This document shows, piece after piece, positions 17,562 through 20,834 of a DNA stretch of 57,909 nt. Position 1 is the first letter of the stretch; every line of letters starts with the position of its first letter. Under the pieces are notes generated by a model that did not search any database, was not told the DNA's origin, and worked only from the letters and a program-made list of their open reading frames with translations. Position numbers and translations under genes: made by a program. Location of the stretch: assembly GCF_005871165.1 (NCBI RefSeq), contig NZ_SWKP01000012.1:1-57909 (forward strand), written 5' to 3'. The DNA comes from Maricaulis alexandrii (GTDB lineage: Bacteria; Pseudomonadota; Alphaproteobacteria; Caulobacterales; Maricaulaceae).

Positions 17562-17936
17562 ATGAATCCGATTCGTATCAATCTGACGCTGGGATTGCTC
17601 TGGCTGCTGCTGGGCATGTTGCTGGGCGAGCATATGGGGCGCACCGGTGACCACGGGCAAATGCCGACCCATGCCCACATCATGCTGCTGGGCGGCGTGC
17701 TCTCGATCAGCTGGGCCGTGATCTACAAGGTGTTCGAAATCCCGGCCGGTTTGCTGGCTTGGGTCCAGACCGGGTTCCACCAGGTCTCGACCGTCGTGAT
17801 GATCACCGGTCTCTACATGCTCTACGGCCATATGGCGGAAGAAGCGGTTCTGGGGCCGGTCCTCGGCCTGTCCGCGATCGGTGCTGTGGTGTCGGTCTTG
17901 CTGGTGCTCGTGCAGACGCTTCGCACCAAGGTCTGA
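17562..17936 (+). CDS. Small membrane protein with His-rich loop
   Basis: The product has 124 residues and four hydrophobic segments (about 8-24, 40-57, 68-88, 95-118). Between helices 1 and 2 is GRTGDHGQMPTHAHIMLLGG, and helices 3-4 carry FHQVST and YGHMAEE. The HAHxMLLGG pattern recalls single-subunit pieces of heme-copper oxidase subunit I, where such His ligands bind heme or copper; this is a resemblance, not an assignment. GGGGGG lies upstream. The next gene is convergent with no spacer. Confidence 0.75.
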   Translation: MNPIRINLTLGLLWLLLGMLLGEHMGRTGDHGQMPTHAHIMLLGGVLSISWAVIYKVFEIPAGLLAWVQTGFHQVSTVVMITGLYMLYGHMAEEAVLGPVLGLSAIGAVVSVLLVLVQTLRTKV

Positions 17937-18650
17937 TCAAGGCTGTTCGTCGTCCGGTCCGGCGTCTTCGTCGCCGCAGGCTTCACTGACGAAGGCGTCC
18001 GGATCGAGCGGCGGCAGGCCCAGCGCCTCGCGGCGCTCTGCGAGCGCTTCCGGGGCGCGGACCGGGGCGAGGGCGGTTTCACCAGACAGGCAGACAAGGG
18101 CGGTGCCATAGGATTGCGGTGCTTCCTGGCTGACGGCCAGGGCATCGGCCATCTGGGCAAAAGCGAGACCGTCGTAATCGCCATTCAGGGCGACCGGTTC
18201 CAGCGCGGCCACGATCTGAGGACGGGCCGATTCGGCCCGCTCCGCCCAGCGCAAGATGTCCTGGGCCATGCGTGGTTCCTCGGCATAGAGCACGGCGAAG
18301 TCTTCCGGGGTCAGCTGATCCACGGCCCATTGCGTATTGGCGTCCTCGACGGCGGCGATCTGCGGACCGAAGGCCTGCAGGATTTCACCCCGTGCGCCAT
18401 CATCCAGATCAGTGCGGCTGATGACGGGCAAGACGAGCCCGGTCAGATAGCGTTCGCGGGCCTTGCGGGCGGCGAGTTCGGCGGCCAGTTCGCCATAGGC
18501 GGCTGCACGGCCTTCAATGTCAGCAATCAGGGTCGGTGCGTCTGTGGGCACGGCCGGCGCCTCGCTCCCGGTTTCCGCCGGTGGCGTCTCCGGCTCCGGG
18601 GTCGGCGTGTCCTGGACGAGCACAAGGGCAATGAGGGCCGTGAACAACAT
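17937..18650 (-). CDS. DUF6624-family secreted protein
   Basis: A protein of unknown function with 237 residues. A hydrophobic start (MLFTALIALVLVQ) looks like a short signal peptide, followed by a Pro/Glu/Ala-rich linker (to about residue 45). The C-terminal half resembles the DUF6624 pattern: TQWAVDQL..DFAVLYAEEP..., then ALAVSQEAPQSYGTALVC, whose PQxYGT motif marks the family. The ATG at 18650 is preceded by AGGAG at 8 bases. A further open stretch upstream crosses a terminator and is not coding. Confidence 0.75.
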   Translation of the reverse strand: MLFTALIALVLVQDTPTPEPETPPAETGSEAPAVPTDAPTLIADIEGRAAAYGELAAELAARKARERYLTGLVLPVISRTDLDDGARGEILQAFGPQIAAVEDANTQWAVDQLTPEDFAVLYAEEPRMAQDILRWAERAESARPQIVAALEPVALNGDYDGLAFAQMADALAVSQEAPQSYGTALVCLSGETALAPVRAPEALAERREALGLPPLDPDAFVSEACGDEDAGPDDEQP

Positions 18651-18675
18651 GACGCAATCTCCTGACTGGAGCGGC

Positions 18676-18704
18676 AGTCTAGGCGGTTCAGGTTCGCTGC
18701 CAAG
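18676..18704 (-). promoter_or_regulatory. Candidate promoter for the DUF6624 gene
   Basis: On the minus strand CTTGGC and TAGACT are separated by 17 bases, just downstream of the terminator hairpin of the preceding small gene and about 25 bases before the start codon. The match to sigma-70 is partial. Confidence 0.3.
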
Positions 18705-18712
18705 AGCGCAAA

Positions 18713-18751
18713 CAAAAAGCGGGAGCTGTGGGGGCAGCTCCCGCTCTTTTT
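18713..18751 (-). terminator. Strong bidirectional terminator
   Basis: An 11-bp perfect stem AGCGGGAGCTG/CAGCTCCCGCT with a 6-base loop is flanked by A5 on one side and T5 on the other. It can stop minus-strand transcripts of the 33-residue protein gene at 18833-18934 and also any plus-strand transcription entering the region. Confidence 0.88.
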
Positions 18752-18832
18752 GGTGAGGGATCGATCCGACCGGTCTGGGCTGTCTCGTGAGGCGGTGAGG
18801 CAGCCGGGACCGGGATCGTAGCCGTTCAGGTT

Positions 18833-18934
18833 TTAGGCAACCGCGCCGGACAGCGCGATCGTCATGGCCCCAAACACACCGGCCACGAAGAGGATATTGA
18901 TCACCGTCGACAGGGTTGAAGTGACGCGGTCCAT
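18833..18934 (-). CDS. 33-residue membrane protein, copy 1
   Basis: Too short for routine ORF calling. The 33 residues start MDRVTSTLSTVINILFVAGV and consist of a short polar N-terminus and one hydrophobic helix (about residues 9-31). It is a clear paralog of the 33-residue protein at 19170-19271: both share N-x-LFV-x-G-x-FGA-x-x-I-x-LS at the same positions and have identical length. AAGGAC lies 7 bases before the ATG. Its own terminator follows about 80 bases after the stop. The role is unknown; it is probably an inner-membrane small protein. Confidence 0.72.
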   Translation of the reverse strand: MDRVTSTLSTVINILFVAGVFGAMTIALSGAVA

Positions 18935-19051
18935 AATGAAGTCCTTTTCTCTTGGCGAGACCGGGCCCTCCCGGTTCGCGTCTTGGTAAATAAGGACTTA
19001 GCCGAAATCCGGAAGCGCCATTCCGCCAATGCGGCATTGCAAAAATGCATA

Positions 19052-19066
19052 TTAAACGTTTGTTAG
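19052..19066. promoter_or_regulatory. CtrA-box-like sequence TTAA-N7-TTAG
   Basis: TTAA at 19052 and TTAG at 19063 are 7 bases apart, one mismatch from the TTAA-N7-TTAA box bound by CtrA in Caulobacter-like bacteria. It stands in the spacer upstream of the 33-residue copy 1 gene. A by-eye match with one mismatch can arise by chance, though TTAA is rare in this GC-rich sequence. Confidence 0.3.
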
Positions 19067-19071
19067 TATGA

Positions 19072-19102
19072 CAAAAAAGAAAGGGCGGCCGAAGCCACCC
19101 TT
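19072..19102 (-). terminator. Rho-independent terminator with UUCG loop
   Basis: Read on the minus strand, AAGGGTGGC, the tetraloop TTCG and GCCGCCCTT form a 9-bp stem with one G-U pair, followed by TCTTTTTTG. It closes the transcription unit of the 33-residue copy 2 gene, whose stop lies about 70 bases upstream. Confidence 0.9.
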
Positions 19103-19169
19103 GCTGCAGACTGTGTCTGGCGGCGATCCGCCCGGTGACGGGCCGCGATTTTCGGGACCGGGTTGGGCC

Positions 19170-19271
19170 CTATCCGGCCAGGGCCGACAGGATGATCATG
19201 GCGGCGCCAAAGAAACCGATCACGAAGAGGGTATTGAAGGCGCTGGAGATCTGGGTCTGGTTGCGAGTCAT
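19170..19271 (-). CDS. 33-residue membrane protein, copy 2
   Basis: Also too short for routine ORF calling. The 33 residues start MTRNQTQISSAFNTLFVIGF and have one membrane helix from about residue 11 to the end. The ribosome binding site AAGGAGA is 6-7 bases before the ATG. It shares about half its residues with copy 1, with the NxLFVxGxFGA core conserved in register. Upstream on the minus strand TTGTGC and TATGCT are 16 bases apart, a possible promoter. A dedicated terminator follows, so the gene appears monocistronic. Confidence 0.75.
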   Translation of the reverse strand: MTRNQTQISSAFNTLFVIGFFGAAMIILSALAG

Positions 19272-19446
19272 GGGAGTCTCCTTTCAATCGGGCTCAGCAG
19301 TATTTCGCATGTGCAGCATACTGCGAATGGTGCGGTGCACAATTTGCAGAAACGGATACCGGGTATGAATTTCCGGGCAGGCGCGTGGCGCGGGTCTTGA
19401 AGCCATTCCGCTTGCGTCCTGCGGGGCAGGGCCTTATCGAGCCGCC

Positions 19447-19845
19447 ATGACCAATCTTTTGCTGATCGGCGCCGGGGGCGCACTGGGTGCCATCTCGCGC
19501 CATCTGGTCGGACGCGCCGCCCTGCGCTGGCTTGGACCGGACATGCCACTGGGTCTGCCCTGGGGCACGCTGGCCGCCAATGTCCTGGGCGGGCTGTGCA
19601 TGGGTCTCCTCGTCGGTTGGCTGGCCCTGTCGGGCCGGGGCTCGCTGGATCATGATATCCGCCTGTTCGGGGCTGTGGGATTACTGGGCGGGTTCACGAC
19701 CTTCTCCGCCTTTTCGCTGGAACTGGCGCAAATGGTGGAACGCAAGCAGGTTACGCTCGCTTTCTCCTATGCTGCCGGATCGGTGCTTCTGTGTCTGGCC
19801 GCAGTTTTCCTCGGCCTGTTTGTCATGCGAAAGGTGCTGGCATGA
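19447..19845 (+). CDS. crcB: Fluoride-specific ion channel CrcB/Fluc
   Basis: Inner-membrane dimeric channel that exports fluoride. The 132 residues contain four hydrophobic helices, the N-terminal GAGGALGAISRHLVG with the conserved Gly-Arg features, GTLAANVLGG with the pore Asn, and the signature GGFTTFSAFS. No fluoride riboswitch is recognisable upstream. Its stop overlaps the start of the pseudouridine synthase gene (ATGA), an arrangement seen in other alphaproteobacteria. Confidence 0.94.
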   Translation: MTNLLLIGAGGALGAISRHLVGRAALRWLGPDMPLGLPWGTLAANVLGGLCMGLLVGWLALSGRGSLDHDIRLFGAVGLLGGFTTFSAFSLELAQMVERKQVTLAFSYAAGSVLLCLAAVFLGLFVMRKVLA

Positions 19846-20834
19846 GTGGTGTTCAGACCCTCCGGGTCGAGCCGTCCGAGGACGGGTCCCGCCTGGACCG
19901 CTGGTTCAAGCGGCGCTTTCCCCATGTCTCGGCCATCATGGTCCAGAAGCTCTGCCGCAAGGGTCAGATCCGGGTCGATGGCGGCCGGGTGAAGGGGGAT
20001 AGCCGGGTCACAGCCGGCCAGGAAATCCGGGTTCCGCCTTTGCCCGAGCCCAGCGAACGCAAGCCCAAGCCGCGCCTGTCGGACGAGGATATCGATTATG
20101 TCCGCTCCCTCGTCATCTATGAGGATGCCGAGCTGATCGCCTTCAACAAGCCTGCCGGTCTGGCCGTGCAGGGCGGGTCCAAGACCACGCGACACCTGGA
20201 CGGTCTGCTGGATGCGTTCGGCGAGGGGCTGGAGCGCCCGCGCCTCGTTCACCGGCTCGACAAGGATACGTCCGGTGTCGTGATTGTCGGCAAAGGGCCG
20301 AAGGCGACGGCGAAACTGGCCAAGGCTTTCCAGTCCCACAAGACCAAGAAAACCTATTGGGCCATCGCCCTGGGTGTGCCCAAGCCGAAAATGGGTGAGA
20401 TCAAGGGCTTCATGAAGAAGGCCGCGGGGGCGGGCGCCGATTCAGAGCGCGAGACCATGGTCGCGGCCCGCCATGGCGATGAGGGCGCCAGCCATGCCCT
20501 GACCCGCTATGTCGTGGTCACCGAGGCCGGTCAGAAAGCGTCCTGGGTGGCGCTGCGACCGGTGACGGGCCGGACCCACCAGCTGCGCGTCCATCTCGCT
20601 GCCATGGGCCATGCCATTCTCGGCGACCGCAAATACACCTGCGACCGTGAAGCCCCGGAAGACCTCGACCGCCGCCTCTGCCTGCATGCCCGCCGTCTGG
20701 AAATCCCGCGCGAGGGCAAGAAGCCGCTGGTCCTCACAGCGGACCTGCCGCGCCAGACCCAGAAGATTTTCGACACGCTGGGCTTCTTCGCGAACGAGAT
20801 CGACGAAGCGGCAGCGGAAGAGGATCTGGCTTAG
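19842..20834 (+). CDS. rluC: RluC/RluD-family 23S rRNA pseudouridine synthase
   Basis: Isomerises specific uridines of 23S rRNA. The 330 residues have an N-terminal S4 domain (about 14-70: RLDRWFKRRFP...RVTAGQEIRVP) and the catalytic domain with VHRLDKDTSGVVIVGKG, in which Asp140 is the expected nucleophile. RTHQLRVHLAAMGHAILGD is the second family motif. The RluC label is the usual one for this gene next to crcB and hat-family neighbours; RluD cannot be excluded. Its last codons overlap the convergent gene by four bases. Confidence 0.9.
   Translation: MSGVQTLRVEPSEDGSRLDRWFKRRFPHVSAIMVQKLCRKGQIRVDGGRVKGDSRVTAGQEIRVPPLPEPSERKPKPRLSDEDIDYVRSLVIYEDAELIAFNKPAGLAVQGGSKTTRHLDGLLDAFGEGLERPRLVHRLDKDTSGVVIVGKGPKATAKLAKAFQSHKTKKTYWAIALGVPKPKMGEIKGFMKKAAGAGADSERETMVAARHGDEGASHALTRYVVVTEAGQKASWVALRPVTGRTHQLRVHLAAMGHAILGDRKYTCDREAPEDLDRRLCLHARRLEIPREGKKPLVLTADLPRQTQKIFDTLGFFANEIDEAAAEEDLA

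What the first reader, a model, noticed from the sequence alone, without database searches (positions are those of the whole stretch)
18833..19271. Two paralogous 33-residue membrane proteins, each its own transcription unit
Both genes encode exactly 33 residues, a polar start and a single helix, and share N-x-LFV-x-G-x-FGA-x-x-I-x-LS in register. Each has a good ribosome binding site and its own strong rho-independent terminator (19072-19102 with a UUCG loop; 18713-18751). That is the layout of abundantly made single-gene messages. Small single-helix proteins of this kind often modulate membrane kinases, transporters or respiratory complexes, but I recognise no family.
Basis: partly seen in the sequence, partly recalled or inferred. 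Interest (0 to 1): 0.75.

Follow-up and report, generated by a model that had tools for sequence, protein, structure and literature searches.

The report
Orphan tiny single-helix membrane proteins
Two neighbouring genes in a marine bacterium (Maricaulis) each make a 33-residue membrane protein; they are real genes and probably belong to an unlabelled family of tiny single-helix proteins whose core member is encoded beside an uncharacterised membrane protein and a DNA-binding regulator.

Summary
P1 (18833-18934) is an old gene: 18 of 19 Maricaulis genomes carry it, in the same crcB neighbourhood, with the lowest pN/pS (0.35) in its own frame and a terminator kept through paired changes. P2 (19170-19271) is a paralogue found in 2 of 19, also under purifying selection (pN/pS 0.15). 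No Pfam, NCBIfam, PHROGs or PADLOC model matches either.

They probably have relatives. Profiles link P1 to 32-41-aa single-helix proteins in at least six genera of the same family. The commonest form is encoded upstream of a DUF2975 membrane protein and, in this genome, an HTH_26 regulator, beside rdgB-hemW. P1, P2 and seven other copies are orphans elsewhere.

Best reading: orphan paralogues of a DUF2975-partner helix that act by helix packing on a multi-pass membrane protein. The family link is likely (about 0.8); partner and effect are inferred. Against: the sequences are very short, and one unrelated helix scores as well against the P1 profile. Novelty is moderate: a new family of a known kind.

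The parts
18833..18934 (-). P1, 33-aa single-helix protein gene
19170..19271 (-). P2, 33-aa paralogue
18713..18751 (-). intrinsic terminator of P1 (may work both ways); hairpin found in 18 of 18 Maricaulis rows with paired changes
19072..19102 (-). intrinsic terminator of P2 with UUCG loop
18941..18946 (-). ribosome binding site of P1, AAGGAC
   Evidence: sequence; conserved in the alignment
19277..19285 (-). ribosome binding site of P2, GAAAGGAGA
   Evidence: sequence
18987..19014 (-). proposed P1 promoter, TTCCGG-16-TATTTA; pattern TT[GC]NNN-16-TATTTA in 18 of 18 Maricaulis rows; not found by the consensus scan
   Evidence: function inferred
19037..19050 (-). conserved upstream block ATGCATTTTTGCAA, possible regulator site
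   Evidence: function inferred
19052..19066 (+). TTAA-N7-TTAA-like site, 1 mismatch (CtrA-type consensus recalled)
   Evidence: 2 in the window against 0.86 expected is not significant alone
18955..18979 (-). possible 5' leader hairpin of P1; z -1.14, not better than many shuffles
19447..19845 (+). crcB, divergent neighbour of P1/P2 (context, not part of the finding)

Best explanation
P1 and P2 are orphan members of an unlabelled family of 32-41-aa single-pass membrane proteins. The family's core member is encoded just upstream of a DUF2975 multi-pass membrane protein and, in this genome, an HTH_26 (Cro/C1-type) regulator, beside rdgB-hemW. The likeliest mode of action is packing of the helix, through an Asn near its start and a small-residue (A/G) face, against a multi-pass membrane protein, tuning its activity or stability: DUF2975 for the core member, and the same or another protein for the orphans. 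Shown: coding, conservation, predicted single helix, separate terminators. Likely: the family link. Inferred: N-terminus in the cytoplasm (only charge of P1 is R3 besides D2), partner, effect.
For: P1 in 18 of 19 Maricaulis genomes and purifying selection. P2 against a P1-only profile: 17.5 and 20.4 bits, 0 of 300 class-keeping shuffles as high. Core form upstream of DUF2975 in 19 of 19 Maricaulis genomes, with rdgB visible in 17, and in 12 of 19 further member loci; small gene, DUF2975, HTH_26 order in this genome. P1 to core: hhalign probability 94%, E 9.1e-8; core profile finds P1 of G011 at 5.8e-7; 14 of 17 P1 rows beat the best non-member of 8,341 helix windows under the core-only profile. 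Asn and V columns kept in at least 90% of 32 members.
Against: Under the P1-only profile one unrelated helix (L065/L068) scores 22-23 bits, above P2 and all core forms, and the 14 Maricaulis core forms score 2.2 or less; under the core-only profile P2 and the g8 P1 score 2.6-4.8, at background. P1 lacks the core operon's TATCG palindromes. No shared neighbour among orphans. No interaction evidence.
Confidence: 0.45

Rival explanations
1. P1 and P2 bind an unrelated membrane protein (transporter, division or envelope protein); their likeness to the DUF2975-linked proteins is convergent or no longer functional.
For: No DUF2975 gene beside P1; different upstream control; an unrelated helix resembles the P1 profile as well as core forms do.
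Against: Core profile ranks most P1 rows above the background helices; hhalign E 9.1e-8.
Confidence: 0.3
2. P1 and P2 are hydrophobic toxins of type I toxin-antitoxin modules: tandem, short messages, single helix.
For: Size, tandem copies, own terminators, P2 present in only 2 of 19 genomes.
Against: P1 kept at one place across the genus under purifying selection; the consensus scan shows no + strand promoter in 18000-20000 (a weak test); no Rfam match near its gathering score.
Confidence: 0.08
3. P1 is a SidA-like inhibitor of cell division induced by DNA damage.
For: Same order and similar size; SidA is recalled as a 29-aa Caulobacter membrane protein (search listing only).
Against: No GTTC-N7-GTTC site (up to 1 mismatch) near P1 or P2; nearest is 18441-18455 inside the neighbouring gene. 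SidA sequence not compared.
Confidence: 0.06
4. P1 is an accessory helix of CrcB, the divergent fluoride channel.
For: crcB beside P1 in 18 of 18 Maricaulis P1 loci and in 4 of 5 g8 loci, the fifth cut by a contig end.
Against: Separate divergent unit; rluC and the DUF6624-like gene are kept just as well; other members lie by rdgB, a symporter gene or a Crp-like gene.
Confidence: 0.06

Closest known systems
DUF2975 (PF11188) with HTH_26 (PF13443) gene pair (YoaS-YozG of Bacillus recalled)
   Same: The core member of the small family lies just upstream of this pair.
   Different: P1 and P2 lie elsewhere, alone; the small protein is not part of either Pfam family.
Small single-helix regulators of membrane proteins, e.g. 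MgrB, AcrZ, KdpF (recalled)
   Same: Size, one helix, presumed action by helix contact.
   Different: No sequence family in common by Pfam or NCBIfam; no partner shown.
SidA of Caulobacter (recalled; listing)
   Same: Order, size class, inner-membrane helix.
   Different: No LexA-type site; sequence not compared.
Type I toxins such as TisB, Ldr, Ibs (recalled)
   Same: Size, hydrophobic helix, tandem copies, single-gene messages.
   Different: P1 kept vertically at one locus under purifying selection; no antisense RNA known.

Membership tests
Small single-helix family of this study (core form beside DUF2975) | Profile similarity to the core form | tested here: inconclusive
   P1: hhalign 94%, E 9.1e-8; 14 of 17 rows above the best non-member window. 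P2: at background under the core-only profile, but joined to P1 (17.5-20.4 bits, 0 of 300 shuffles). One unrelated helix rivals the P1 profile.
Small single-helix family of this study (core form beside DUF2975) | Short frame, single predicted helix, ribosome site, in-membrane Asn | tested here: met
   the two g8 P1 rows have Gln in place of Asn.
Small single-helix family of this study (core form beside DUF2975) | Next to DUF2975 | tested here: not met
   Not for P1/P2; 7 of 19 other member loci also lack it.
Curated protein families | Match to a Pfam, NCBIfam, PHROGs or PADLOC model | tested here: not met
   0 families for P1 and P2: E<=10; E<=1.
SidA-like SOS division inhibitor | LexA-type site GTTC-N7-GTTC upstream | tested here: not met
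SidA-like SOS division inhibitor | Blocks division when made | not testable with these tools
   needs experiment
Type I toxin | Antisense RNA antitoxin | tested here: inconclusive
   No + strand promoter by simple scan, no Rfam match near gathering score; RNA-seq needed.
Small subunits of respiratory complexes or pumps (CydX, CcoQ, KdpF; recalled) | Encoded in the operon of the host complex | tested here: not met
   Neighbours are crcB, rluC, a DUF6624-like gene and rarA, and P1 has its own terminator.

The most novel reading that the evidence does not exclude
Caulobacterales carry, beside rdgB-hemW, a three-part membrane switch: a tiny single-helix protein, a DUF2975 membrane protein and an HTH_26 regulator acting at TATCG palindromes. 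In the window's family the tiny helix has been copied to other places (P1, P2 and other orphans) as trans-acting inputs that compete for or retune DUF2975-type proteins. The small frames at the same place in two other families (f3, f5) would be functional counterparts although they show no sequence relation.
Probability: 0.25. Interest if true: 0.72.

Novelty: new member of a known kind. Interest (0 to 1): 0.5.

Why it matters
It adds a conserved, unlabelled small-protein family with one specific, testable partner candidate, DUF2975, a protein of unknown function that the same search reports in 5 of 14 control genomes, Bacillus subtilis and Caulobacter vibrioides among them. Orphan copies at unlinked places would let one separate what the helix does from what its operon does.

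Tried and rejected
Curated families: none for P1/P2. Rfam at a permissive threshold, window 18600-19500: three matches, all far below gathering scores (22.8 of 60, 21.9 of 218, 16.3 of 71 bits), taken as chance. Viral contigs: 177 pattern hits, none a relative. Class-wide search with A5: 2 of 387 genomes at E<=0.01, the own genome and one weak match (0.0039) inside a 386-aa frame; the rows listed show few members of the window's family. Regulon of the P1 upstream blocks: ATGCATTTTTGCAA has one exact and one 1-mismatch copy in the genome; CTAAGTCCTTATTTACC has its own copy and one 2-mismatch copy, no more than the reversed control's five. TATCG palindrome: one match, at the core operon, the control also giving one. 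LexA-type site: none near. f3 and f5 small frames as relatives of P1: rejected, scores at background; kept as positional counterparts only. Weak A1 matches inside long frames were dropped. L172 was fetched but left out (E 0.118).

Literature, six searches: DUF2975 gave 2 papers; small proteins with Caulobacter 14; YozG 12, 10 listed; Maricaulis with small protein 5; small-membrane-protein terms 29, 10 listed; SidA terms 44, 6 listed. For these I saw listings and abstract starts; of PMC4117421 I saw three passages, which do not mention DUF2975 or rdgB. I saw no paper on this family in those listings; the library lacks most subscription journals.

Corrections made: P1 hairpin was flagged by the scan on the + strand only; the spacing to DUF2975 is 60-160 nt, not 85 everywhere; rdgB is visible in 17 of 19; 14 of 17 (not all) P1 rows beat the background.

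Full report
What is there. On the minus strand between the divergent gene crcB and a DUF6624-like gene lie two 33-codon frames, P1 (18833-18934) and P2 (19170-19271), each with a ribosome site and an intrinsic terminator. P1 is predicted as one helix, residues 2-32, mean pLDDT 89.9, pTM 0.48; for 33 residues this says little more than that it is helical.

Is it real? P1 as query over 61 genomes was found in 18 of 19 genomes of the window's genus, the miss being a 69% complete genome; the genus is named Maricaulis. At all 18 loci crcB lies divergent beside P1 with rluC after it, and the DUF6624-like gene lies downstream of P1, with a 700-800 nt gap in L031, L034 and L040. Over all pairs of 18 P1 genes, pN/pS is 0.35 in frame and 0.55 to 4.81 in the other five frames. 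The terminator hairpin is found in 18 of 18 Maricaulis rows, with inner pairs that differ on both sides. The 19th row, from genus g8 (L042), failed that pattern, though a different hairpin followed by TTTT stands just after its stop (by eye). TT[GC]NNN-16-TATTTA lies 79-88 nt before the ATG in 18 of 18 Maricaulis rows and not in L042; I read it as the promoter, but the consensus scan did not list it. Further up is ATGCATTTTTGCAA or a near copy. So P1 is a conserved gene that most likely forms its own unit. P2 is in this genome and G012 only, with 12 synonymous and 5 non-synonymous differences. A tree of crcB-rluC from 10 genomes places G001, which lacks P2, as sister to these two. G001 keeps what looks like the 3' arm of the P2 terminator, which favours loss in G001 over late gain without proving it.

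Family. P1 is also in five genomes of genus g8 (at least eight were searched, and 19 genomes without a match were not listed), beside crcB in four of five loci, the fifth being cut by a contig end. Weak matches reaching the C-terminus in genera g5, g13 and g14 proved to be whole 37-38-aa frames with ribosome sites upstream of a DUF2975 gene and next to rdgB-hemW (seen in L082, L090, L092; rdgB in L083; hemW in L094). In Maricaulis, 19 of 19 genomes have this small frame before DUF2975; rdgB is visible in 17, and in L117 and L120 the contig starts inside the small gene. Spacing between small gene and DUF2975 is about 60-160 nt. A second DUF2975 locus, L121, shows no such frame by the same test. 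In this genome the order is small gene, DUF2975, HTH_26 regulator.

Are P1 and this core form related? For: hhalign probability 94%, E 9.1e-8 (A1 includes P2 and a g8 row). The core profile finds P1 of G011 at 5.8e-7 and five other P1 genes at 0.008-0.03. With core forms alone as profile, 17 P1 rows score 9.8-29.3 bits; the best non-member among 8,341 helix windows scores 12.0 (two higher windows are family member L157), so 14 of 17 are above it, one ties and two are below. The g10 protein upstream of DUF2975 reads LATVIN, as some P1 rows do. Against: under the P1-only profile an unrelated helix from L065/L068 reaches 22-23 bits, above P2 (17.5, 20.4) and all core forms (at most 21.4); the 14 Maricaulis core forms score 2.2 or less; P2 and the g8 P1 score only 2.6-4.8 under the core profile. 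I put the relationship at about 0.8. P1 to P2 paralogy is safer: same place, same length, 0 of 300 shuffles as high.

Spread. Core profile over 348 genomes of the order: 42 have a match at E<=1e-6, all in the window's family, in six genera (my count). Outside that family the best is 3.4e-4, in a frame with a stop. Class-wide with the joint alignment, 2 of 387, one being this genome, which shows three members: P1, P2 and the core form. Of 20 regions fetched around further matches one (L172) was left out; of 19, 12 have DUF2975 and rdgB within reach and 7 have neither. Among these orphans, L154 and L158 are divergent from a sodium:solute symporter gene and L155 and L159 from a Crp-like gene, by Pfam in L155 and by resemblance in L159; L160-L162 share no such neighbour.

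Wider context. DUF2975 was found in 27 of 36 genomes tested outside Maricaulis. Of 30 such loci, 25 show rdgB or hemW, and 8 show a single-helix frame with a ribosome site upstream, 1 in the window's family (g10) and 7 in others. The same filter was positive for 48 of 224 control genes; by my reading 41 of these are DUF2975 or member loci, leaving 7 of about 183, a rate near 4%. The f3 and f5 frames show no sequence relation to P1 or the core form.

How it may work. Across 32 members an Asn near the start of the helix and a Val seven residues later are nearly invariant, small residues follow, and 28 of 32 end in Ala. An Asn in a membrane helix with a small-residue face is a usual basis of helix contact (general knowledge). 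The place of the core member makes DUF2975 the first candidate partner. The P1 upstream region lacks the core operon's TATCG palindromes, so P1 is under other control. TTAA-N7-TTAA-like sites (up to one mismatch) occur upstream of P1 in 10 of 18 rows, against a mean of 1.6 and a maximum of 5 in 200 shuffles; the rows are related and make up about four lineages, and in the window alone two such sites are no surprise (24 of 100 shuffles). That they mean CtrA is recalled consensus and inference.

Verdict. A correct observation of two real genes, part of an unlabelled family of a known kind, with an interesting partner candidate and no proof of function.

Noticed in passing
L113 (own genome, contig C4) and aligned loci L102-L119, upstream of the core small gene: Nearly unchanged palindromes TATCG-AAAAA-CGATA and TTTATCGATAAA in 15 aligned Maricaulis sequences between rdgB and the small gene; probable operator of the HTH_26 regulator.
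   Followed up: partly
L177, L182, L183, L174 (f3) and L201, L184, L192 (f5): Other single-helix small frames, 38 and 44 aa, upstream of DUF2975 in two other families of the order, unrelated in sequence to P1.
   Followed up: partly
Family members in alignment A5: 28 of 32 end in Ala, mostly after a hydrophobic residue, at a fixed distance from the helix; it looks like a signal peptide that stops at its cleavage site, or like an -LVA/-LAA degradation tag (resemblance recalled).
   Followed up: no
L102-L119, between the core small gene and DUF2975: An inverted repeat without a long T run separates the two genes in many Maricaulis rows (by eye); perhaps a partial terminator or processing site.
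   Followed up: no
window 17562-17936 (+): 124-aa conserved frame between rarA and the DUF6624-like gene with no Pfam match at E<=1.
   Followed up: no
L065, L068: A helix in a ~275-aa frame of genus g5 resembles the P1 helix (NILIVAGVLGA), taken as chance likeness and used as a warning against over-reading short helices.
   Followed up: partly
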